From NCBI GenBank assembly GCA_029942265.1, contig JAOZTO010000034.1:1-11918 (forward strand): a DNA stretch of 11,918 nt. Reading direction: 5' to 3'. The translations under genes and the position numbers were made by a program. Positions 1 to 8,301 of this stretch are shown one piece after another (the stretch's first letter is position 1; each line of letters opens with the position of its first letter). The stretch is from Desulfocapsa sp. (GTDB taxonomy: Bacteria; Desulfobacterota; Desulfobulbia; Desulfobulbales; Desulfocapsaceae). The notes below the pieces were generated by a model. That model did not search any database and was not told the DNA's origin. It saw only the letters and a program-made list of their open reading frames with translations.

Positions 1-276
1 AACACGCGTAATAACAGGAACACCGGGTTTATGTGGCTTGTTACTATCTTTAAGTAGTAGTGCTATTAGTAAAGCACCCGTTTGAAACAGGGCCTCGCAT
101 AATAAAACGCCTGGTAGTATAGGATGCTCAGGGTAATGTCCCTGGAAAACATCTAAATCCTCAGAGATAAACTTTTCAGTAGTTAGAGATGTTTTATCGT
201 ATTCAAGCATCGTATCAACCCAGAGAAATGGTGGGCGATGAGGAATGAGATCGGTTATCTTGATGTCTTGGATCAT
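1..276 (-). CDS. FabZ/FabA-like 3-hydroxyacyl-ACP dehydratase (hotdog fold), 3' end beyond window
   Basis: The first 92 codons of a dehydratase that removes water from 3-hydroxyacyl-ACP to give the trans-2-enoyl-ACP. The start ATG is at 276-274. Visible family signatures are PHRPPFLWVD at residues 12-21 and GHYPEHPILPG at 46-56, followed by the LLCEA helix. His47 and Glu61 stand 14 residues apart, the same spacing as the catalytic His/Glu pair of FabZ. A GGAGG ribosome-binding site lies about 10 bases before the ATG, inside the last codons of the upstream ketoreductase gene; only 3 bases separate the two genes, so they are probably translationally coupled. It would supply the dehydration step for the ketosynthase/ACP encoded in the same operon. 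The gene runs off the left edge, so total length and any fused domain are unknown. A non-FabZ hotdog enzyme of a secondary lipid pathway is equally compatible. Confidence 0.88.
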   Translation of the reverse strand, partial: MIQDIKITDLIPHRPPFLWVDTMLEYDKTSLTTEKFISEDLDVFQGHYPEHPILPGVLLCEALFQTGALLIALLLKDSNKPHKPGVPVITRV

Positions 277-279
277 ATC

Positions 280-1017
280 TCACAATCCTCCGTTCACATC
301 AAGAACCGTTCCACTGATATAGGAAGCATTCTTTGATGCTAAGAAAAGCACAGCATCTGCGATTTCTTCAACTTTTCCAAAGCGGCGCATCGGCACGGAT
401 TTTTTATATTCTTTAAGTAGCTCTGGGCTGAGATCATCAATAAGTTCAGTATCTATAAATCCGGGCGAAACACAATTAACGGTAATTTTTTTTCGTGCAA
501 CTTCTTTACATAAACTCCTTGTAAGACCAATTTGTCCGGCTTTTGATGCACCATAATTAGTCTGTCCGGCAAAACCGATGTGGGCAACAGGAGATGTAAT
601 GTTAATAATGCGGCCATATTTTTGTTTCAACATGAGCATTACTGCGTATTTACACATGTTAAATGTTCCAGTGAGATTGACATCAATAACTCTTTGCCAG
701 TTTTCCTGATCCATTAATACCAGGAGTTTATCCTGGCGAATACCAGCATTATTAACAAGAATATCAATGGTGTCGTATTGCTCTTCTATGGTATTAAAAA
801 AGCTCTGCACCTGTTGCGTATCAGCTACATCGCATTGGTGTAGTTGTAGATCTCCACTCAGGTGTTGGCACTCACTTTGAAATCTGTTTGCTGCTTCTTT
901 GTTTCCACCATATATTCCAATGACTGTTGCTCCACGTTCCAGGAATGAAACACTGACAGCTTTTCCAATTCCACGGGTTGCGCCGGTAATAACAACTTTT
1001 TGTTTTATAAAATCCAT
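280..1017 (-). CDS. fabG: FabG-type 3-oxoacyl-ACP reductase (short-chain dehydrogenase)
   Basis: A 245-residue classical short-chain dehydrogenase, the normal length for FabG, which reduces 3-oxoacyl-ACP to 3-hydroxyacyl-ACP with NADPH in the cytoplasm. The nucleotide-binding motif TGATRGIG is at residues 11-18 and NNAG at 89-92. The catalytic set N114, S142, Y155 and K159 is complete, with the YxxxK motif in NYGASK. The C-terminus ends in NGGL, close to the usual GG-terminated end of FabG. The gene follows the first flavoprotein gene by 7 bases and is followed by the dehydratase after 3 bases, so it sits in the middle of a tight operon. The context suggests a pathway-dedicated copy rather than the housekeeping fabG, which normally lies with fabD/acpP/fabF. 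Family assignment is firm; the exact substrate is inferred. Confidence 0.93.
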   Translation of the reverse strand: MDFIKQKVVITGATRGIGKAVSVSFLERGATVIGIYGGNKEAANRFQSECQHLSGDLQLHQCDVADTQQVQSFFNTIEEQYDTIDILVNNAGIRQDKLLVLMDQENWQRVIDVNLTGTFNMCKYAVMLMLKQKYGRIINITSPVAHIGFAGQTNYGASKAGQIGLTRSLCKEVARKKITVNCVSPGFIDTELIDDLSPELLKEYKKSVPMRRFGKVEEIADAVLFLASKNASYISGTVLDVNGGL

Positions 1018-1024
1018 AATATAT

Positions 1025-2434
1025 TTAATCTCTGCTTCTCATATATGCATCAACATCATTAGAGACAATCACACCATAGTTAATGGCACCGAGCCACCCA
1101 GACATGATAATGCCCACCGAACCGACGTGAAACAAACCGCCAATTTCTTTGAAAATTGATCGTGATACGTCAAGTCCTTCAAACTTAGTTCCAAAGGAAG
1201 TGCCTTGTGTATGAAGAGTATAACGGTTGAAGGTTTTAGGTGTTGCTGCTTCAATCCAATTCATTCGTTCCCTAGCATTTGGAAAATAGCGATTGAGGTC
1301 AAGGAGAGTACGCTCAATAAGGGCTTCTTTCTCTATGGCATACTCTTCTTTTGTAAAATGTTCCCAGTCGCCATAGTTGGAATTCATAGATGCAACTATG
1401 GTGTATTTATTGTGACCTGGACGAGTTTTTGGGTAATATACTGAGAATGTTTTAGATTCAGTTTTAAAGTCGCACAGTTCTTTCGAGGCAAATTCTTCAG
1501 CTGTGGATGTGAAAAGTAGATCGCCAATGTTGTCTATTTTTTCATCAGGTTTAAGCCCCATGTATACTTGGCATGAGGAGTTATTCACACGAATGGCATC
1601 AGCTTTTTCAAGAAATTCATCTGAAAAAGCTCGTTTATCTGTAAGGTTGTGAATGGTATTGGTAATTCCTGAATTGGAAACAACGGCCCCTGATTCAATA
1701 ATTCTCCCCTGACATTCAACTCCTCTAACCTTGCCTTTTTCAACAATAACACGATCAACTTTAGCATTGGTACATATGGTGACGCCGTTGTTTTCAAGTT
1801 CTGTTGTCATCATGGCGATGAGTTTGTCTGTTCCACCTTCAAAGGTAAATACACCTTTATTCATAAAGTTAGAAAACACAATGCCGTATGTTATGGCAGG
1901 GTCATCAAGTGTTGATCCGTTGGCGTAACTGATTGGTTCCATAAGTAGTCGATGAACATCACTACGTCCTGGAAAAAACTCCTCAAACAGTTCCCTGGTT
2001 GTCATGCTCTGGTCGTCATAAAAATTCATTCCGGAAACTCTGGTGAAAAAGGCATCTATTACTGATTGTGAAATCTTGAATTGATGATTGAGTTTATGGG
2101 TGAAATCAATACGATCAAATGTTGTTTTTAGGTGAAACTGAGGGTTATCAAAAACAATATTTTTTAACTGGACAATGGAGTTCATTATCTCCTTATTCCA
2201 GTATTTCCTACAGGTTTTAACCATCCCGTATGGAAATCCATGGAGTGAGACGTCAAAAATATGTCCCTTGCGCTTAAACCAGGTGGCTAGCCCACCAAGT
2301 TGGCTGTGATATTCAAGGAGAAGGATACTGTAACCGCAGTAGGCAAGCCTGTTAGCAGACGTTAGCCCTCCAAGGCCGGATCCTATAACAATTACATCAT
2401 ATGAGTCAGAAGCTTGTGAAAACGAAACAGGCAT
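1025..2434 (-). CDS. CrtI/phytoene-desaturase-like FAD-dependent oxidoreductase (first of two, operon-distal)
   Basis: A 469-residue flavoprotein. The N-terminal FAD-binding Rossmann fold is clear: DVIVIGSGLGGL at residues 13-24, the acidic ribose-binding Glu41 and the second-shell GGLA at 47-50. A C-terminal FAD-contacting segment typical of the CrtI/carotenoid-isomerase/retinol-saturase group (LFHVGS, then a glycine-rich MSGWLGAINYG) lies near residues 435-455. Family members desaturate, saturate or isomerise long conjugated or isolated double-bond chains. Here the gene lies between a second, divergent family member and fabG in a fatty-acid-type operon, so the likely substrate is an acyl chain. 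The ATG at 2434 has no strong Shine-Dalgarno; the gap upstream (2435-2558) is filled largely by a truncated repeat. Family confidence is high; the reaction is inferred. Confidence 0.85.
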   Translation of the reverse strand: MPVSFSQASDSYDVIVIGSGLGGLTSANRLAYCGYSILLLEYHSQLGGLATWFKRKGHIFDVSLHGFPYGMVKTCRKYWNKEIMNSIVQLKNIVFDNPQFHLKTTFDRIDFTHKLNHQFKISQSVIDAFFTRVSGMNFYDDQSMTTRELFEEFFPGRSDVHRLLMEPISYANGSTLDDPAITYGIVFSNFMNKGVFTFEGGTDKLIAMMTTELENNGVTICTNAKVDRVIVEKGKVRGVECQGRIIESGAVVSNSGITNTIHNLTDKRAFSDEFLEKADAIRVNNSSCQVYMGLKPDEKIDNIGDLLFTSTAEEFASKELCDFKTESKTFSVYYPKTRPGHNKYTIVASMNSNYGDWEHFTKEEYAIEKEALIERTLLDLNRYFPNARERMNWIEAATPKTFNRYTLHTQGTSFGTKFEGLDVSRSIFKEIGGLFHVGSVGIIMSGWLGAINYGVIVSNDVDAYMRSRD

Positions 2435-2457
2435 AATTAATTTGTAGTAATGTTTGA

Positions 2458-2524
2458 ATGGATTCGTAAAAACTCTTCATCTTCTTTGTTACTGCAAATC
2501 TCGTATCATTTCAACGTACTCTAG
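2458..2524. repeat. Truncated copy of the palindromic repeat family B, inside the lipid operon
   Basis: These 67 bases align without gaps to 11606-11672, the left half of the complete element near the right edge, with 4 differences (63/67 identical by eye). Homology stops abruptly after the shared ACGTACTCTAG. The complementary right arm is missing here, so this copy cannot form the long stem of the full element. The following bases carry CTAGAG (2559-2564), which can pair with CTCTAG (2519-2524). The fragment occupies most of the gap between the two flavoprotein genes. Confidence 0.85.
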
Positions 2525-2558
2525 GAGGCTGTCCGGGAATGCCTTTTCGGCCAAGCTT

Positions 2559-3944
2559 CTAGAGACGAGGTAGAATATGCTGGTTAACAATTGAAACGCC
2601 ACTTAACATAGAACCAACGATACCAAGAAACCCCTGGTCAGTTCCTGCTAAGAAGAGATTGTTGTATCCAATGTTCCCATCTTTTATTTTGATGGGGTTA
2701 CCGTAAATGGAACCTTTCTTTTTCCCTGTGTAACGCTCTATTGTTAGTGGAGTAAAAGTATCACAATATACAACATTTTGAGCAAAATTACCAAGAATTT
2801 TCTCTGCAATCAAAAGGGATGAGTGGGCAGTGTGTTCTTTTGCTTTGTTATAAGTAAATGGATCATTATGGATCAAGTGCCATTCATCGTAATTTGCAAG
2901 GTGGGTAGTCCTTATTTCTTTAAATGGTAATTGAGGAAGACCATAGAAATTTTGAGGCATACAGATGACTCCCGAATTGCAATCAAAGAGTGATTCAGGT
3001 TGCTGATATGAAAATTTTTCGGCACTATTGAAAAATATTATAGTACTGTCATGCGCATGTTCGAGAGGTGTGCTTTTCTCAATCTCAAATATTGTTTCTA
3101 TAAAGCCAAGTCTTGGTAATTTTTGAATACCAGAGGGTTCGTCAAGAAGTGTAAACGTCTCCTCTGAACCGATGGTTGAAAGAATATAGTCACAGGTGAT
3201 TTCTTCACCACTAGCGAGGGTGACTCCTTGAATAGTCTTGTTTGTGTGAAGTATACGTTTGACAGATGCATTTTTTCGGATCGAACCACCATGTGTAGCG
3301 TAATGTTTCAGCAGCAAATCGAGCAAGTCTTTTATGGTACCACCTGGTCTAAACATCCCCTCAAGGAATATAGCTCTAAACATAATCACAAACTGGCTGA
3401 AATCCATGTCCCGCTCGATTGCTGATCCGTAGTACATGAGTGGACAGAGGAGCATGTCTGTAAGAAGATCGTTTTTAAGATAATTATTAAGAACTTGTTT
3501 TGCTGATATGAATGGAAGAGGAATAAATGGATCGTAGGATTCAATGTACTGTAACAACGCAATAAATCCATGGCTACAGTCTGGAAACTTTGTTTGTATC
3601 TCAGACTGTAGAAGGGAGAAATCATTGGAAAAAGAGAGCGATTCCTGGTCAATAAATCGAATTTCACTATGGTTTTGTTGATGAATTTCAAGTTCGGAAC
3701 GCTTGATTTTTAATTGTCTGAGGAGTCTGTTTAGCGGTGCATGTTTATCTTTAGGATGGGCGAAATTGGTAATAGCATGGAGACCAGTCTCAAAGAGCCG
3801 ACTGTTTCTGTAATAGTAGGAGTTCAACCCACCAACCCGTGAGTGTTGTTCAAGAAGCAGGACATCTGGAATAAAACGTGCGAAACGTAAAGCGGCGGCA
3901 AGCCCAGAAAGGCCGCCGCCGATAATCAGTAAAGGAACATGCAC
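2559..3944 (-). CDS. CrtI/phytoene-desaturase-like FAD-dependent oxidoreductase (second, follows ACP)
   Basis: A 461-residue flavoprotein of the CrtI/CrtISO/retinol-saturase group. The FAD motif LLIIGGGLSGL is at residues 5-15, Glu32 is the likely ribose ligand and GGLN is at 38-41. The C-terminal cofactor segment NLFLAGTDQGFLG followed by MLSG lies at about 427-446. It shares only motifs with the other flavoprotein of this operon, so the pair is not a recent duplication. The start must be the GTG at 3944-3942: the ACP stop TAG is in the same frame with a single CAA codon between, so no longer start is possible and a later one would break the Rossmann strand. The junction has no visible Shine-Dalgarno, which suggests reinitiation or coupling to ACP translation. 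It probably oxidises or reduces an acyl chain carried by that ACP; the reaction is inferred. Confidence 0.85.
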   Translation of the reverse strand: MHVPLLIIGGGLSGLAAALRFARFIPDVLLLEQHSRVGGLNSYYYRNSRLFETGLHAITNFAHPKDKHAPLNRLLRQLKIKRSELEIHQQNHSEIRFIDQESLSFSNDFSLLQSEIQTKFPDCSHGFIALLQYIESYDPFIPLPFISAKQVLNNYLKNDLLTDMLLCPLMYYGSAIERDMDFSQFVIMFRAIFLEGMFRPGGTIKDLLDLLLKHYATHGGSIRKNASVKRILHTNKTIQGVTLASGEEITCDYILSTIGSEETFTLLDEPSGIQKLPRLGFIETIFEIEKSTPLEHAHDSTIIFFNSAEKFSYQQPESLFDCNSGVICMPQNFYGLPQLPFKEIRTTHLANYDEWHLIHNDPFTYNKAKEHTAHSSLLIAEKILGNFAQNVVYCDTFTPLTIERYTGKKKGSIYGNPIKIKDGNIGYNNLFLAGTDQGFLGIVGSMLSGVSIVNQHILPRL

Positions 3945-3947
3945 TTG

Positions 3948-4199
3948 CTAAACGTTTACGAGCAATGGTTCCAAATAATTTACACAAGAATCCAAGGTCG
4001 CAAGTTCAGGGTAGTCTTCTTCGGGGATCTGTAATTTATGCCGTTTTCGAAGTTCCATTACAATATCCAGGAAATCCATTGAATCAAGGTCTAGCTGATC
4101 CCGTAATGGTTGGTCTGATTGAAGAGTGTCAAAATCAGCATCTTCGTCAATATCTTCTATTATTTCGAGGATGAGATTTTTAATTGAATCGCGAGTCAT
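3948..4199 (-). CDS. Acyl carrier protein, pathway-dedicated
   Basis: An acidic 83-residue carrier protein. Ser40 in the motif QLDLDSMDFLD is the expected 4'-phosphopantetheine attachment site and is followed by the usual helix II (DIVMELRKRHKLQI). The length is normal for an ACP. The start at ATG 4199 is supported by GGAGA about 7 bases upstream; an in-frame start further upstream would add an unrelated hydrophobic stretch and was not used. It tethers the growing chain for the ketosynthase upstream and for the FabG- and FabZ-type enzymes downstream. Placement directly between the ketosynthase and a CrtI-like flavoprotein suggests that the flavoprotein also works on an ACP-bound chain. The stop TAG lies one codon before the flavoprotein start, in the same frame. 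The sequence differs from housekeeping AcpP, in which the serine motif is DSLD. Confidence 0.92.
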   Translation of the reverse strand: MTRDSIKNLILEIIEDIDEDADFDTLQSDQPLRDQLDLDSMDFLDIVMELRKRHKLQIPEEDYPELATLDSCVNYLEPLLVNV

Positions 4200-4450
4200 A
4201 TGTGTATCTCCGGCCGTTGCCTGAATGATATGAATAAAATGTATTATTGCGTAAAATAATAAAATTTTGCAATATAGCACACTGGAGTAAATTTACACAT
4301 ATTTTTTCAAAGTGCCATAAAAAAGAATGTGTTATTAATTGTTAAGGCGCTGAGTCGTAAATATTCGGCTAGCACCCCATCTTCGTTCGATCCGGCTTGT
4401 TCGCATATGAACAAGTATATCGGGTACTTCGAGATCGTGCAGGGTTGTGT
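4200..4450. other. Non-coding gap between ketosynthase and ACP genes
   Basis: A 251-base gap interrupts an otherwise tight operon. Its right half is the truncated family A repeat (4357-4428, listed separately). The left half is very AT-rich and holds a palindrome GTAAATTTAC at 4287-4296 and inverted arms TATTGC/GCAATA at 4245-4250 and 4269-4274. A secondary promoter for ACP and the downstream genes could sit here, but I see no convincing -35/-10 pair. Confidence 0.4.
4357..4428. repeat. Truncated inverted copy of palindromic repeat family A
   Basis: Bases 4357-4419 match the reverse complement of 8149-8211 at 61 of 63 positions, including an uninterrupted 46-base identity (4357-4402 against 8166-8211). 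The next bases (CGGGTACT, to 4428) resemble a later part of the other copy (GGGGTACT), as if about 30 bases of the second hairpin arm had been deleted. A short hairpin remains: CTTGTTC (4396-4402) pairs with GAACAAG (4409-4415). It lies immediately downstream of the ketosynthase stop codon, inside the operon. Confidence 0.85.
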
Positions 4451-5695
4451 TCATGGAGCGCTTACTTTTTTAATAATTATCACTGAATTAATACCAACCA
4501 TTCCAAACGAATTATTCAGTATGGTGTTCACTGAATCCAATTTAACTGGGGTATCAAAAACCATATTATTTAAAGTACATTCAGGATCAAGATCATCGCA
4601 GTTGATAGAGGGATGCACCATATTGTCCTCAAATGCTAGGAGGTTTCCTGCAAGTTCCAGGACGCCTGCCGCACCCATCGCGTGCCCTATAATAGATTTA
4701 GTGTTGTTGATGTACGGCTTGTTTTTTTTACCGAAAACTTTTTGAATGGCTTTGCATTCTTCAATATCTCCTTGTTTAGTACCTGTTGCATGGGTATTGA
4801 GAATATCAATATCGTCAGGCGCAAGACCTGCTCTTTCAAGTGCAAGCTCCATGCATTCTGCCTGTCTTTCATAAAAGGGAAGTACATAATCTCTAGCATC
4901 TGAATTTATAGCGTAGCCAGCGATTTCAGCATAAATAGTAGCCCCCCTTTCAAGGGCACTTTCAAGACGTTCAAGTACGTAGATACATGCACCTTCAGAG
5001 ACTACTATCCCGTTACGAGAAGTGTCGAATGGTCTGCATGCTTTTCTTGGGTCATCGGCAGAACCCAACGCACCCTGAGCCTGAAAACTGGCAAATATTC
5101 CAAATGAACCAGTTGATTCGGAAACTCCTCCGGCAAGAGCCATATCTACCTCGCCAAGGCGTATCATCTGAACTCCCTGGATGAGTGATGCGTTTCCGGC
5201 AGCACATGCAGCACCAATGGCATAGTGCGGTCCGGTAATCCCAAGGTTCATCTTAATTTCACCGGCGGGATTATTCAAAACTGTTCGGGGATTATGGTGA
5301 TGAGTCCAATAGTCCACATTATGGCCATATTGGCTAATATTATACACTTCATTTTCTGTTTCTACTGTGCCATGTTCTGTGAGTCCGACATACACGCCAA
5401 CACGAGAAGCTCCATAGTGCTCAATGGAAAGATCGGCATCTGCAAGTGCTTCATTGGCGCAATATACACCTAGGCATCCAGCACGGGTTCCCCGTTTGTT
5501 TTCTTTTTTCTTGCGGTATTTAGTTTCATTGAAGCTACAGATACCAGCAGGCGCTTTTCCGAAATAACGTAGGTCAATTTCTTGAATTTCACTGATACCT
5601 TTAAGGAGTTTTTCACGATAGCTTGAAAGATTGTCAGCATTGGGTGAAGCAAGGCCGACACCAGTTATTACAATTCTTGGTAGTTGTGTATTCAT
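4451..5695 (-). CDS. FabF-type 3-oxoacyl-ACP synthase (ketosynthase)
   Basis: A 414-residue thiolase-fold condensing enzyme, the usual FabF length, which adds two carbons from malonyl-ACP to an acyl-ACP. The Cys-His-His triad is complete: C164 in GAACAAG, H302 in NTHATGT and H338 in KSIIGHAMGAAG, with the conserved K333. The first strand (RIVITGVGLASPN) starts at residue 6, supporting the ATG at 5695. The loop that in E. coli FabF reads GFGGTN with the gating Phe400 reads GMVGIN here (398-403), so the gate Phe is Met and the next Gly is Val; chain selectivity may differ. It is the first gene of the lipid operon, 77 bases from the lipoprotein gene upstream. I see no acyltransferase or chain-length-factor partner, so malonyl-ACP is presumably loaded by the housekeeping FabD. 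Confidence 0.92.
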   Translation of the reverse strand: MNTQLPRIVITGVGLASPNADNLSSYREKLLKGISEIQEIDLRYFGKAPAGICSFNETKYRKKKENKRGTRAGCLGVYCANEALADADLSIEHYGASRVGVYVGLTEHGTVETENEVYNISQYGHNVDYWTHHHNPRTVLNNPAGEIKMNLGITGPHYAIGAACAAGNASLIQGVQMIRLGEVDMALAGGVSESTGSFGIFASFQAQGALGSADDPRKACRPFDTSRNGIVVSEGACIYVLERLESALERGATIYAEIAGYAINSDARDYVLPFYERQAECMELALERAGLAPDDIDILNTHATGTKQGDIEECKAIQKVFGKKNKPYINNTKSIIGHAMGAAGVLELAGNLLAFEDNMVHPSINCDDLDPECTLNNMVFDTPVKLDSVNTILNNSFGMVGINSVIIIKKVSAP

Positions 5696-5749: not shown

Positions 5750-5775
5750 AATGAAGAGTTGTCACGATGCCATCA
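5750..5775 (-). repeat. Short terminus-like fragment of repeat family B overlapping a stop codon
   Basis: Bases 5750-5774 match the reverse complement of the left terminus of the complete family B element (11605-11629) at 19 of 25 positions, with the conserved ATGAAGA, ACGA and CCATC blocks. The terminal TGATGG, read on the minus strand, supplies the TGA stop of the lipoprotein gene. It may be a decayed element end or a chance resemblance. Confidence 0.4.
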
Positions 5776-6390
5776 AAGGTGCTTTGAAGTAAGGTCACTG
5801 GTGAGGATATCCGTAATCCCTTGGTAATATTTTTTTGTCATAACAGGATCAATTGATTTTGTACGTGCTGACCAAATAAGGTTTTCTGTTTTGACATCAT
5901 AGAGGTTGCTTTCAAGTACCACAATTGTTTTGTTAACATAACTTCCCATGTCTGAGACTGAACTTCGCACAAAAGGATAATAGCTATATAGCCTCCCTGG
6001 AGCATAACTATTTGATCCAACAACATAGCTTGATGGTATAAAAGAATTTTCTTCTTTTGCATCAAGAATATGGGTGATTAATACTGTGCCAGCAGCAGCT
6101 TTTTTAATAATTGAACGTAATGATTGTTCATTAGGTTCAATAGGCTGCTCGCTGATGGTGTGGCTTGGTATTGCAAGAATTTTAGCTTTAGCAAAGCTGT
6201 TCACGAAAGTGTCTTCGTATATATTTCGTATGGTTGGGTTGTTATTGGCAACACCTATAATGAGAACAGGTTCTATGGGAGATTTTTGGGCTGATTTATC
6301 ATTCCAGCTTGATAGGAGTTGGGTTGAAGAACATCCTGTAAGCAGGATACTGATAACTAAATAACTAAATAAAAAAAATATTGTTTTCAT
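5773..6390 (-). CDS. Lipoprotein of unknown function, DUF4136-like
   Basis: A 205-residue predicted lipoprotein. The signal peptide is a Lys followed by a hydrophobic run (residues 4-16) and ends in the lipobox LTGC at 17-20, with Cys20 as the lipid-anchored residue. SerSer at +2/+3 gives no inner-membrane retention signal, so the outer membrane is expected. The mature part begins with a SSWND motif and has a late VxSNLYDVKTENLIWSA-type strand, reminiscent of the DUF4136 group; I do not recognise a precise family. A good AAGG ribosome-binding site lies 7 bases before the ATG. It follows lptF by about 100 bases and precedes the ketosynthase gene on the same strand, so it may be cotranscribed with either. 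Function is unknown; an envelope role is likely from the location signal. Confidence 0.78.
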   Translation of the reverse strand: MKTIFFLFSYLVISILLTGCSSTQLLSSWNDKSAQKSPIEPVLIIGVANNNPTIRNIYEDTFVNSFAKAKILAIPSHTISEQPIEPNEQSLRSIIKKAAAGTVLITHILDAKEENSFIPSSYVVGSNSYAPGRLYSYYPFVRSSVSDMGSYVNKTIVVLESNLYDVKTENLIWSARTKSIDPVMTKKYYQGITDILTSDLTSKHL

Positions 6391-6492: not shown

Positions 6493-7986
6493 CTATTTTG
6501 CAGTGTAATCATCTTTTTCAAGAAGAGTCTTACAGAAACGGCACGGTATAAAACCAGAATCCTCAGCCAACTGCGTGTTTTTAAATTCAATAGTACAATT
6601 TTTACAATAATAAAATTCACAGCCGGGTAAATGAAAAACATGACTGTTAACATTTCCATGTACGGTGCCTTCTGTTAAAAAATCTGATCCTGCTATAATT
6701 TCTTTTTTGGTATTTGCTGTAAGCCCTAGTGTTGCCTGATCATCTGTTACTGCCGATTTGGTGTTTAATCCCGGAAGCAAGCTTTTAAGTTTTTTGAGGA
6801 TGGGAGAAATAAATTTATCAAAGAATAGTATAAAAATATTCTTTATTGACGATGGAATAATCTGGTGTTCATTGGCAACCTGTCGAATAAAGTAGAGTGT
6901 TAAAAATAAAAAAACAACATTAGGAAGCCACATAGCTGGAGCAACAGGGTACCCACCTTCTTCTGCAAGGGCTTTTCCAAAAGTAAAAAGAATATAGTAC
7001 AAAATAAAAAGCGCAAGCCCTAATGGAACACCTACGGCTTTTTTCCCAGGACCTGCTTGCAAGCCAAGGGGCATGCCAAGCAGACTTAAGATAAAACACC
7101 CGACGGGAAGCACGAGTCGTTTGTGGTATTGAACCAGTATATCTCTTCCTTCAGGGGTGTCATAGCCGACTTTTTCAAGAGCGTCATCAAGCTCTTTCAT
7201 TGTAAGTGATGAGACTACCAGGCGAGTGACATCTTCTCCATCAAGAATGGTTGGTGGTTGCAAGGGGATATTAATAGTGTATTCATCAAAATTTATAACC
7301 TGTGATCTGAACGTATCTGGCCGATGTAAGCTACCATTTTTTAAAGTAATGGTAACCATCATAGTCTCAATGTGCGCTTCCATGATCCCAGATTGTGCCA
7401 TAGTGATAATAGGGTATACTTGGCCGCGCATATCGGAAACCCACACATTTTGCCATTCATCAGTGTCTTTGTCTATAACATCGACGTAGACTACAAGATC
7501 ACCAAGTGCCTCAGTAAACTGATCTTCTTTAATCCCTTTATCAATTTTTTCCTTAGCAACTTGAAACATTAACTGTTTCATGGCAATTTCTGATTTAGGG
7601 ATCAAAGTTGCCGAGAAATAACCTGTGAGAAGTGCAATAGCAGCAGAAACCATAATAACAGGGGGAATCATTTGATAGAGACTGACGCCGCTTGCTTTAA
7701 ATGCTAATATTTCACTATCAGTGGAGAGTCTAGTGAATGCAATGATTGTACTCATCATTGCAGCCATAGGAATTGAGTAGAGAAACATATTTGGAAATAG
7801 ATACAAAAAAAGACGAACAAAATCGACGAATCCGATTTCCAGTTCTAGTACCACATTCAGAAACGGAATAAGTTTGACCAGAAAAAAAACACTGTTCATG
7901 ATCAAAAAACTGGCAAAAAAAGGAGCCAGCATTTCTGTAGCGAGGTAGCTGTATAGGAGCTTTGGCAATCTTGAGAGTTTTAGCAT
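6493..7986 (-). CDS. lptF: LptF/LptG-family lipopolysaccharide-export permease with C-terminal Ada-type zinc-binding tail
   Basis: A 497-residue YjgP/YjgQ-family permease, the inner-membrane part of the Lpt machine that extracts LPS and passes it to LptC/LptA. Three membrane helices (about residues 21-41, 54-84, 107-129), a periplasmic beta-jellyroll-like region (about 130-288) and three more helices (about 291-370) give the family layout. About 370 residues would be a complete permease. The remaining 125 comprise a linker and, from about 440, a segment GNVNSHVFHLPGC...GFIPCRFC. This resembles the Ada metal-binding domain, with His452, Cys456, Cys482 and Cys485 as likely ligands and extra Cys461 and Cys464. 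I chose the ATG at 7986; an in-frame TTG 12 codons upstream is also possible, and neither has a clear Shine-Dalgarno. No second permease gene lies alongside. LptF rather than LptG is a judgement. Confidence 0.88.
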   Translation of the reverse strand: MLKLSRLPKLLYSYLATEMLAPFFASFLIMNSVFFLVKLIPFLNVVLELEIGFVDFVRLFLYLFPNMFLYSIPMAAMMSTIIAFTRLSTDSEILAFKASGVSLYQMIPPVIMVSAAIALLTGYFSATLIPKSEIAMKQLMFQVAKEKIDKGIKEDQFTEALGDLVVYVDVIDKDTDEWQNVWVSDMRGQVYPIITMAQSGIMEAHIETMMVTITLKNGSLHRPDTFRSQVINFDEYTINIPLQPPTILDGEDVTRLVVSSLTMKELDDALEKVGYDTPEGRDILVQYHKRLVLPVGCFILSLLGMPLGLQAGPGKKAVGVPLGLALFILYYILFTFGKALAEEGGYPVAPAMWLPNVVFLFLTLYFIRQVANEHQIIPSSIKNIFILFFDKFISPILKKLKSLLPGLNTKSAVTDDQATLGLTANTKKEIIAGSDFLTEGTVHGNVNSHVFHLPGCEFYYCKNCTIEFKNTQLAEDSGFIPCRFCKTLLEKDDYTAK

Positions 7987-8301
7987 TGTTGTCGATTCAT
8001 GATACAAAATAAAAAATAACAATAAAAGACGTATGAAAAAAGTTGATTATCTATGTAAATATTAGAGTTGGCTTCAAGAATAAGCTAACCCACTGAATTG
8101 TAAATGTTTGGATAGTACCCCCAGGTTCGTTTGATCCGGCTTGTGAACTATATTTGTTCATATGTGAACAAGCCGGATCGAACGAAGATGGGGTGCTAGC
8201 CGAATATTTACTTATCTATATACCAAAACTTATTAAAAAAGGGTAGATAAGGTGAACGAATATAAAAATATGAACAAAAAAAACTTTTAGAGGTCAAAAA
8301 A
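7987..8301. other. Divergent intergenic region between lptF and the zinc-ribbon gene
   Basis: This 315-base stretch separates two divergently transcribed genes. Half of it is the complete family A element (8055-8211) with its flanking direct repeats. The remaining AT-rich flanks must hold the promoters of both genes unless the element supplies them; I could not identify a convincing -35/-10 pair. The only clear signal is the AGAGG ribosome-binding site at 8290-8294 for the zinc-ribbon gene. Confidence 0.6.
8047..8219. mobile_element. Complete MITE-like element, family A (157 bp, candidate 8-bp target duplication)
   Basis: The element spans 8055-8211. It begins GTAAATATT, ends AATATTTAC (9-bp terminal inverted repeat) and is flanked on both sides by TTATCTAT (8047-8054 and 8212-8219). 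Inside, 8100-8211 is a long imperfect palindrome: its left arm (GTAAATGTTTGGATAGTACC, then TTCGTTTGATCCGGCTTGT) pairs with the right arm (ACAAGCCGGATCGAACGAA, then the GGGGTGCTAGCC end). The loop is about 8144-8163. The element has no coding capacity. An inverted, truncated relative is at 4357-4428. Mobilisation in trans by an unlinked transposase is inferred. Confidence 0.72.

What the first reader, a model, noticed from the sequence alone, without database searches (positions are those of the whole stretch)
1..5695. Dedicated fatty-acid-type operon combining ketosynthase, ACP, two CrtI-like flavoproteins, FabG and FabZ
Seen: six minus-strand genes in the order FabF-type KS, ACP, CrtI-like, CrtI-like, FabG, FabZ, mostly 3-8 bases apart, with all catalytic residues that I could check present. 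Known: KS/ACP/FabG/FabZ form an elongation cycle, and CrtI-family enzymes insert, remove or isomerise double bonds in long hydrocarbon chains. From memory, sets combining FabF-like KS, ACP, FabZ and CrtI-like enzymes were proposed as ladderane-lipid candidates in anammox bacteria by comparative genomics. I cannot verify that link here. Inference: an oxygen-independent route to an unusual polyunsaturated or cyclised acyl lipid. This is the best candidate for an undescribed system in the window.
Basis: partly seen in the sequence, partly recalled or inferred. Interest (0 to 1): 0.75.

Follow-up and report, generated by a model that had tools for sequence, protein, structure and literature searches.

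The report
Oxygen-free polyunsaturated hydrocarbon gene cassette
A conserved set of six genes in sulfur-metabolising bacteria most likely builds highly unsaturated fatty chains without oxygen and hands them to a hydrocarbon-making enzyme, which could explain how such anaerobes make unusual long polyunsaturated hydrocarbons without the giant enzyme other bacteria use.

Summary
The six genes are real and form a conserved cassette (KS-ACP-CrtI-like A-CrtI-like B-FabG-FabZ): complete and in order in 61 of 80 related loci, cut by contig ends in 16, altered in 3. It is neither the genome's only fab locus nor a carotenoid locus. Partly published: Rattray 2009 reported flavoprotein-bearing FASII clusters in Desulfotalea psychrophila, proposed anaerobic PUFA synthesis, and found C31:8/C31:9 hydrocarbons but no ladderanes. 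New here: the cassette tracks OleA, the head-to-head hydrocarbon condensing enzyme: 10 of 12 cassette-bearing against 11 of 185 cassette-free Desulfobacterota; 49 of 50 named cassette genomes. In other families oleABCD lies behind the cassette and a FabI, and in one genome nests inside it between the flavoproteins. In 7 of the 11 cassette-free OleA genomes a giant KS-containing synthase (PfaA-like in both tested) takes that place. Best reading: a dissociated polyunsaturated-acyl synthase feeding OleA, the flavoproteins setting cis double bonds (inferred). Weaknesses: in the window's family OleA stands alone with no OleB-D nearby, two cassette genomes showed no OleA, and no chemistry was tested.

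The parts
4451..5695 (-). FabF-type ketosynthase; catalytic Cys/His/Lys/His kept, gate loop G-M-V-G instead of G-F-G-G
   Evidence: PF00109/PF02801; TIGR03150 314 bits, below the equivalog cut-off 493.75; alignment, loop count
3948..4199 (-). acyl carrier protein, 83 aa, with the LDLDSMD attachment site
   Evidence: PF00550 (scanned as the longer ORF); sequence; 54-95% identity in relatives
2559..3944 (-). CrtI-like flavoprotein A (GTG start)
   Evidence: PF01593 62 bits; NCBIfam carotenoid models far below cut-off; model pLDDT 92.8, first PDB match 4rep carotenoid desaturase, TM 0.74
1025..2434 (-). CrtI-like flavoprotein B, the better conserved of the two
   Evidence: PF01593 47.9 bits; TIGR02733 104.5 bits against cut-off 549.7; model pLDDT 87.8, first PDB match 4rep, TM 0.77
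280..1017 (-). FabG-type 3-oxoacyl-ACP reductase
   Evidence: TIGR01830 297.2 bits, cut-off 297.75; over cut-off for two FabG-type subfamily models
1..276 (-). FabZ-type 3-hydroxyacyl-ACP dehydratase, 92 aa, cut off by the contig end; 138-162 aa in the relatives read gene by gene where it is not fused by the ORF caller
   Evidence: PF07977 44.4 bits; truncated piece TIGR01750 72.3 against FabA 19.9 bits; full-length relative PF07977 60.7 bits; lengths

Best explanation
The cassette encodes a dissociated (type II) synthase for polyunsaturated acyl-ACP that works without oxygen and supplies OleA, whose head-to-head condensation starts the route to long polyunsaturated hydrocarbons such as C31:8 and C31:9. 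The special KS elongates on the dedicated ACP; FabG and FabZ make the trans-2-enoyl intermediate; a FabI-type reductase (last gene of the cassette in other families; here presumably encoded elsewhere, not sought) completes the fully reductive rounds. In selected rounds the CrtI-like flavoproteins set the cis double bond. Shown: genes, order, conservation, co-occurrence with OleA, and operon-type linkage with oleABCD in other families. Inferred: polyunsaturation, C16 chain length, use of the product by OleA in this genome, and what each flavoprotein does. By my own arithmetic C31:9 equals two 16:4(n-3) acyl chains plus one new olefin bond, and making 16:4(n-3) by PUFA-synthase logic needs two kinds of cis-isomerisation.
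For: In one 197-genome Desulfobacterota sample, flavoprotein B (E<=1e-80) is in 12 and OleA (NF006720, E<=1e-60) in 21, 10 shared: 10/12 against 11/185, Fisher p 1e-9; outside the window's order 3/5 against 11/183, p 0.003 (relatedness not corrected). OleA is over cut-off in 49 of 50 named cassette genomes. OleA lies 2-3.5 kb from flavoprotein B on the same strand in 5 of the 10 genomes, and beside FabG-FabZ and a FabI-like gene in a sixth, L183. L166: KS-ACP-A-B-FabG-FabZ-FabI-OleA-(regulator)-OleB-OleC-OleD. L169: KS-ACP-A-OleA-OleB-OleC-OleD-B-FabG-FabZ-FabI, with A/OleA overlapping by 4 bases and OleD/B abutting; OleC 652 and 620 bits against cut-off 478. 9 of 80 named loci have FabI and OleA downstream, 8 of them also OleB and 7 OleC within the fetched stretch. 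In 7 of the 11 OleA-positive, cassette-negative genomes a 2264-2375-aa KS-containing ORF sits directly before OleA; the two tested are PfaA-like with a FabA-type domain. D. psychrophila makes C31:8/C31:9 and its authors found no PUFA-type PKS in it. No PfaA-like hit at E<=1e-60 in 36 of 50 cassette genomes (at most 5 candidates scored per genome).
Against: OleA alone might give ketones (recalled). Two cassette genomes of one family (G014, G051) show no OleA at E<=1e-60, one of them with FabI beside the cassette. Of the 11 cassette-negative OleA genomes, 3 (L177, L179, L180) show neither cassette nor giant synthase beside OleA and one (L178) is cut by the contig end. Two of 50 cassette genomes have a PfaA over cut-off as well. 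Within the window's family OleA is nearly universal (72 of 73, 71 over cut-off), so only wider comparisons are informative. One cassette genome (G033) also has a sub-threshold FabA-like match. No compound from any genome examined here was measured; D. psychrophila's own cassette was not examined. Desaturase and isomerase roles cannot be told apart by fold.
Confidence: 0.68

Rival explanations
1. The cassette makes ordinary monounsaturated membrane fatty acids in place of FabA/FabB; the tie to OleA only reflects that OleA uses what is there.
For: FabA (TIGR01749) is over cut-off in 0 of 197 phylum genomes, 6 sub-threshold, none in the window genome; C16:1 makes up 54% of the D. psychrophila lipid extract; the KS is strongly conserved (71-89% identity in the 80 best of 156 loci).
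Against: 185 of 197 genomes lack flavoprotein B at the threshold used and also lack a FabA over cut-off, so the cassette is not the general solution. One search missed FabA-type domains inside the PfaA-like proteins of G181 and G147, so its count is not complete. A housekeeping route would not be expected to be interleaved with oleABCD (L169), or to stand where a PUFA-type synthase stands elsewhere.
Confidence: 0.17
2. Ladderane-type pathway: the cassette desaturates chains that radical SAM enzymes then cyclise, as proposed for anammox.
For: Rattray 2009 reports synteny of D. psychrophila FASII clusters with Kuenenia candidate clusters. Cassette relatives G005 and G006 also carry a separate tandem-KS/radical-SAM locus, and the window genome has pieces of it.
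Against: No ladderanes in D. psychrophila. No radical SAM match among the six window genes. D. aestuarii has the cassette but no match to the tandem KS of that locus. The 2016 expression study of Kuenenia candidate genes in E. coli was by its own words not successful in elucidating the pathway, and the two flavoproteins did not make lycopene (PMC4790861, passages).
Confidence: 0.05
3. The flavoproteins desaturate finished acyl-ACP stepwise, like phytoene desaturase; KS/FabG/FabZ only lengthen the chain. The product is still polyunsaturated and goes to OleA.
For: The first PDB match of both models is a carotenoid desaturase; this is Rattray's proposal. Isomers of C16:1 and C18:1 share carbon-isotope values with the C31 polyenes.
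Against: A dedicated KS, ACP, FabG, FabZ and, in other families, FabI argue for building double bonds during elongation. The first desaturation of a saturated chain is chemically hard, as Rattray notes. This rival differs from the best explanation only in the last step, so its confidence overlaps with it and is not part of a sum to one.
Confidence: 0.35
4. Carotenoid or conjugated pigment (aryl-polyene-like) biosynthesis.
For: CrtI-like fold; KS/ACP/KR/DH without an enoyl reductase in the window.
Against: No phytoene synthase match in the genome. All carotenoid family models listed are far below cut-off. Other families add FabI and oleABCD to the cassette.
Confidence: 0.03

Closest known systems
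FASII clusters of Desulfotalea psychrophila with DP2405/DP2406, and Kuenenia kuste3603-3608 (Rattray 2009; Javidpour 2016)
   Same: FabF-type KS, ACP, FabZ and pfam01593 flavoproteins; D. psychrophila has two flavoprotein genes with successive numbers
   Different: Kuenenia's cluster has one flavoprotein, a non-canonical FabF and a radical SAM gene. In the parts seen neither paper mentions Ole. D. psychrophila's genes were not compared here by sequence.
[quoted passage not shown] 'Type I' cluster of Geobacter, Shulse and Allen 2011)
   Same: stands directly before OleA and is thought to supply the polyunsaturated chains of C31:9
   Different: type I megasynthase with FabA-type dehydratase/isomerase; the cassette has discrete proteins, a FabZ-type dehydratase, no FabA-type domain, and two CrtI-like flavoproteins
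OleABCD head-to-head hydrocarbon pathway
   Same: OleA in 49 of 50 named cassette genomes, full gene set beside the cassette in other families
   Different: the cassette itself contains no Ole gene in the window; it would be the acyl supplier
CrtI/CrtD/CrtISO carotenoid flavoproteins
   Same: fold and FAD-binding region
   Different: 14-18% identity to 4rep and 4dgk, far below family cut-offs, fatty-acid gene context, no phytoene synthase match

Membership tests
Pfa-type PUFA synthase | type I multidomain PfaA protein | tested here: not met
   six separate proteins; PfaA over cut-off in 2 of 50 cassette genomes, no hit at E<=1e-60 in 36 of 50, at most 5 candidates scored each
Pfa-type PUFA synthase | FabA-type dehydratase/isomerase domain | tested here: not met
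   truncated dehydratase scores FabZ 72.3 against FabA 19.9 bits; the window genome has two PF07977 matches, this one and C179
Pfa-type PUFA synthase | gene linkage to oleABCD (frequent, not universal) | tested here: met
   in other families; not in the window's own family
Canonical FAS II locus | sole or main fab locus of the genome | tested here: not met
   separate fabG-acpP-fabF (C80) and plsX-fabH (C182)
Canonical FAS II locus | KS with G-F-G-G gate loop | tested here: not met
   G-M-V-G; G-M-[VLI]-G in 85 of 91 KS-like proteins
Carotenoid biosynthesis | phytoene synthase in the genome | tested here: not met
   PF00494 0 matches, genome 88.85% complete
Carotenoid biosynthesis | flavoproteins over the family cut-off | tested here: not met
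   best 104.5 bits against cut-off 549.7
Ladderane candidate cluster (anammox) | radical SAM gene in the cluster | tested here: not met
   none among the six window genes
Ladderane candidate cluster (anammox) | ladderane lipids in carriers | not testable with these tools
   absent in D. psychrophila in the literature
Deltaproteobacterial cluster of D. psychrophila | orthology of DP2405/DP2406 to flavoproteins A and B | not tested
   no locus named Desulfotalea was fetched; inferred from gene numbers and Pfam family in the paper
Acyl supply for the Ole pathway | OleA in the same genome | tested here: met
   L096:5582-6616, NF006720 430.8 bits, cut-off 285
Acyl supply for the Ole pathway | OleB, OleC and OleD in the same genome | tested here: inconclusive
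   none on the 7-kb stretch with OleA; rest of the genome not searched for them

The most novel reading that the evidence does not exclude
A second, independently assembled kind of polyunsaturated fatty acid synthase: discrete type II proteins in which two CrtI-like flavoproteins replace the FabA-type dehydratase/isomerase, acting as redox-neutral trans-to-cis isomerases on enoyl-ACP, one for the 2,2- and one for the 2,3-shift, so that all-cis methylene-interrupted chains are made without oxygen. The same chemistry could make the polyunsaturated precursor of ladderanes in anammox bacteria.
Probability: 0.25. Interest if true: 0.85.

Novelty: new variant of a known kind. Interest (0 to 1): 0.68.

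Why it matters
D. psychrophila makes C31:8/C31:9 hydrocarbons although its authors found no PUFA-type synthase in it, a question open since 2009 as far as my searches show. The oleABCD linkage names a compact, testable gene set for it, suggests that a PUFA-synthase role was filled twice (type I and type II) for the same hydrocarbon pathway, and offers an oxygen-free enzyme pair for making cis double bonds. It would also redirect work on ladderane precursors, where similar flavoproteins remain without a known activity in the papers seen.

Tried and rejected
UFA idea: I expected cassette genomes to lack FabA and cassette-free ones to have it; FabA is over cut-off in 0 of 197, so the test does not discriminate. 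That search also missed FabA-type domains inside two PfaA-like proteins (G181, G147) that one search shows, so its count covers stand-alone proteins at best, and other genome counts may have misses too.

Carotenoid reading: rejected. Ladderane reading: not needed for the cassette.

Structure comparison was meant to separate desaturase from isomerase; it only returned the CrtI/amine-oxidase fold.

The search for OleC relatives listed 120 of 7999, most without names; no listed name says Desulfocapsa, which says nothing about absence. The search for flavoprotein A relatives listed 120 of 2437, the best ones, so anammox relatives were not reached.

Looking for D. psychrophila among family genomes by size and contig number failed. 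The PfaA cut-off is a poor yes/no test, since the PfaA-like proteins before OleA also score below it; I give both counts.

Literature: searches of an open-access library. 0 papers hold Desulfotalea+hydrocarbon+olefin, 0 hold oleABCD+phytoene; most subscription papers are not covered, and PMC2893475 is not held. Of PMC2649909 I saw abstract, sections 9 and 10 and passages; of PMC4790861, PMC3098273, PMC6463001, PMC9702510, PMC9821293 and PMC7064751 passages only; other papers as listings.
Full report
What is there. The window is a whole 11,918-base contig (G000:C34) of a 2.93-Mb, 588-contig, 88.85%-complete genome. Its genus is that of Desulfocapsa sp. NORP205: the genome of L007 and a same-genus genome carry OleA at identical contig coordinates. 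The six genes are real: KS 4451-5695, ACP 3948-4199, CrtI-like A 2559-3944, CrtI-like B 1025-2434, FabG 280-1017, FabZ 1-276 (cut by the contig end), all on the minus strand. Three of five gaps are 3-7 bases; the others are 124 and 251. Relatives show what lies beyond the contig end: a full-length FabZ and then, in the four relatives read first, genes that I read as tolQ-tolR-tolA-tolB-pal; a TolQ match lies within 50 of the 80 loci.

Conservation. One scan with the KS found 156 relatives and kept the best 80, titled mostly as Desulfocapsa, Desulfobulbaceae or Deltaproteobacteria, metagenome bins and some isolates. The six-gene order is complete in 61, cut by a contig end in 16 and different in 3. 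Identity to the window, where found, is roughly 71-89% for KS, 68-88% for flavoprotein B and 48-77% for flavoprotein A. The KS keeps its catalytic residues but has G-M-V-G at the loop where FabF has G-F-G-G; that this loop gates the acyl pocket is general knowledge, so altered chain selection is an inference.

It is not the housekeeping set and not a carotenoid set. The genome has a separate fabG-acpP-fabF cluster and a plsX-fabH cluster, and no phytoene synthase match. Both flavoproteins are far below every listed carotenoid family cut-off, although their predicted structures (pLDDT 87.8 and 92.8) match carotenoid desaturase 4rep first (TM 0.77 and 0.74).

What was already known. Rattray et al. 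2009 (PMC2649909; abstract, sections 9 and 10, passages) described FASII clusters of Desulfotalea psychrophila with three pfam01593 genes, two of them with successive numbers (DP2405, DP2406), compared them with Kuenenia clusters, proposed anaerobic PUFA synthesis, and found C31:8 and C31:9 hydrocarbons (5% of the total) but no ladderanes. They found no PUFA-type polyketide synthase in that genome. Javidpour et al. 2016 (PMC4790861, passages) found that the two Kuenenia flavoproteins do not make lycopene, and call their efforts to elucidate the pathway not successful. I did not see D. psychrophila's own sequence; that DP2405/DP2406 are A and B is inferred.

The new lead: OleA. The window genome has an OleA-family protein (NF006720, 430.8 bits, cut-off 285; that this model corresponds to OleA is my recollection, supported below by its neighbours). 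In one sample of 197 Desulfobacterota genomes, flavoprotein B (E<=1e-80) is in 12 and OleA (E<=1e-60) in 21; 10 genomes have both. That is 10 of 12 against 11 of 185 (Fisher p 1e-9), and outside the window's order 3 of 5 against 11 of 183 (p 0.003) (numbers entered by me; shared ancestry not corrected). Among 50 named cassette genomes (those of the 80 loci of at least 14 kb) 49 have OleA over cut-off; the miss is L022/G212, a metagenome bin. In the window's family OleA is in 72 of 73 genomes, 71 over cut-off.

Physical linkage. Of the 10 genomes with both, five have OleA 2-3.5 kb from flavoprotein B on the same strand, and a sixth has FabG-FabZ-(FabI-like)-OleA together (L183) while KS, A and B lie on another contig (L194). 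L166 reads KS-ACP-A-B-FabG-FabZ-FabI-OleA-(response-regulator-like)-OleB-OleC-OleD. L169 reads KS-ACP-A-OleA-OleB-OleC-OleD-B-FabG-FabZ-FabI, with a 4-base overlap of A and OleA and no gap between OleD and B. In these two loci OleC scores 652 and 620 bits (cut-off 478), OleD about 390 (below its cut-off of 580), OleB matches haloalkane-dehalogenase-like models below cut-off, and FabI matches below the equivalog cut-offs. Nine of the 80 named loci have FabI and OleA downstream of the cassette, eight of them also OleB and seven OleC within the fetched stretch; a tenth shows FabI at its contig end. Two different arrangements of the same two modules argue for a common pathway rather than chance neighbours; the nested one was seen in one genome.

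The place of a PUFA synthase. Of the 11 OleA-positive genomes without the cassette, seven have a 2264-2375-aa KS-containing ORF directly before OleA (L170-L176), one is cut by the contig end (L178), and three (L177, L179, L180) show neither. In the two loci tested the big protein matches PfaA (553 and 506 bits, below the cut-off of 1010) and contains a FabA-type dehydratase domain (about 200 bits). Shulse and Allen 2011 (PMC3098273, passages) describe such clusters in Geobacter and note that G. bemidjiensis makes the C31 polyene. Conversely 36 of 50 cassette genomes have no PfaA-like hit at E<=1e-60 and 2 have one over cut-off, with at most five candidates scored per genome. One of those two, G235, has two OleA genes, and one of them groups with the Pfa-linked OleA (L195). 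In that OleA tree of 48 sequences (some loci of one genome enter twice) the cassette-linked OleA of 14 loci and the lone OleA of the window's family form one group (support 0.87) apart from the Pfa-linked group (1.0), with the nested L169 copy branching separately (groups labelled by me, L178 among them without a profile test; species relatedness could give a similar tree).

How it most likely works. KS, ACP, FabG and FabZ run elongation rounds on a dedicated carrier; FabI completes saturated rounds. In prokaryotic PUFA synthases the FabA-type dehydratase makes cis bonds by 2,2- or 2,3-isomerisation (PMC9702510, passages). The cassette has only a FabZ-type dehydratase, so the cis bonds must come from something else, and the two flavoproteins are the candidates in it. 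C31:9 corresponds to two 16:4(n-3) chains plus one new olefin bond; this and the need for two isomerisation types are my derivation. That carotenoid isomerases of this fold can act without net redox is recalled. Stepwise desaturation of finished chains, Rattray's idea, remains about as likely.

Against the reading. In the window's family OleA is alone: no OleB, OleC, OleD, FabI or cassette gene matched in 10 of 10 fetched 20-kb stretches around it or on the window genome's own 7-kb stretch, and I could not search the rest of these genomes for them. Two cassette genomes (G014, G051) show no OleA; G051 has cassette and FabI together and two further lone flavoprotein-B relatives. FabA is over cut-off in none of the 197 sampled genomes (6 sub-threshold, among them cassette genome G033), though that search missed embedded FabA-type domains seen, so many of these bacteria seem to make unsaturated lipids by other means, and a wider lipid role of the cassette is not excluded. 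No product has been measured for any genome examined here.

Verdict. The set is best described as a type II variant of a polyunsaturated-acyl synthase feeding the Ole pathway; known in part since 2009, with the Ole linkage not found in print by the searches listed in Tried and rejected.

Noticed in passing
L191:7280-18889, L192:1-16489; pieces in the window genome: L093, L094, L095: A separate locus with tandem KS genes, radical SAM-type genes (one B12-binding), ACP, FabZ-like, thioesterase, dehydratase-like, MMPL-type transporter, glycosyltransferase and acyltransferases (names partly by eye); it resembles Rattray's description of D. psychrophila clusters, and the B12-radical SAM protein matches the NCBIfam 'ladder' lipid model below cut-off (96 against 360 bits).
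   Followed up: partly
L096:5013-6616, L209, L211: In the window's family OleA is a lone gene; in the three stretches read gene by gene it lies beside an AMMECR1-type gene (PF01871 confirmed for L096). An OleA without OleBCD nearby may make ketones.
   Followed up: partly
L165:9432-9674 and L167:9870-10166: A small protein lies between the FabI-like gene and OleA in two genomes (DUF1232, PF06803, confirmed for L165).
   Followed up: no
L085:10001-12928: This locus keeps only KS-ACP-flavoprotein A; B, FabG and FabZ did not match although the contig goes on. It may be a decaying or simplified cassette.
   Followed up: no
L187:9335-10789 and L188:9324-10796: Genome G051 has two extra flavoprotein-B relatives (about 51% identity) without KS or FabG matches in the 20-kb stretches around them.
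   Followed up: no
L042: A cassette-bearing contig filed under a Candidatus Roizmanbacteria bin; at 75% KS identity to the window it is probably mis-binned Desulfobulbales DNA.
   Followed up: no
window 6493-8022: LptF/LptG-type permease with a Cys-rich C-terminal tail that reminded me of an Ada-type metal site (recalled; no Pfam match there).
   Followed up: no
protein ids P0236, P0237: OleC relatives (62% identity to the L071 query) in cable bacteria (Candidatus Electrothrix), which suggests Ole products there.
   Followed up: no
window 5773-6390: Lipoprotein-like ORF (205 aa) without a Pfam match; similar-looking proteins precede the cassette in L007, L010 and L014.
   Followed up: no
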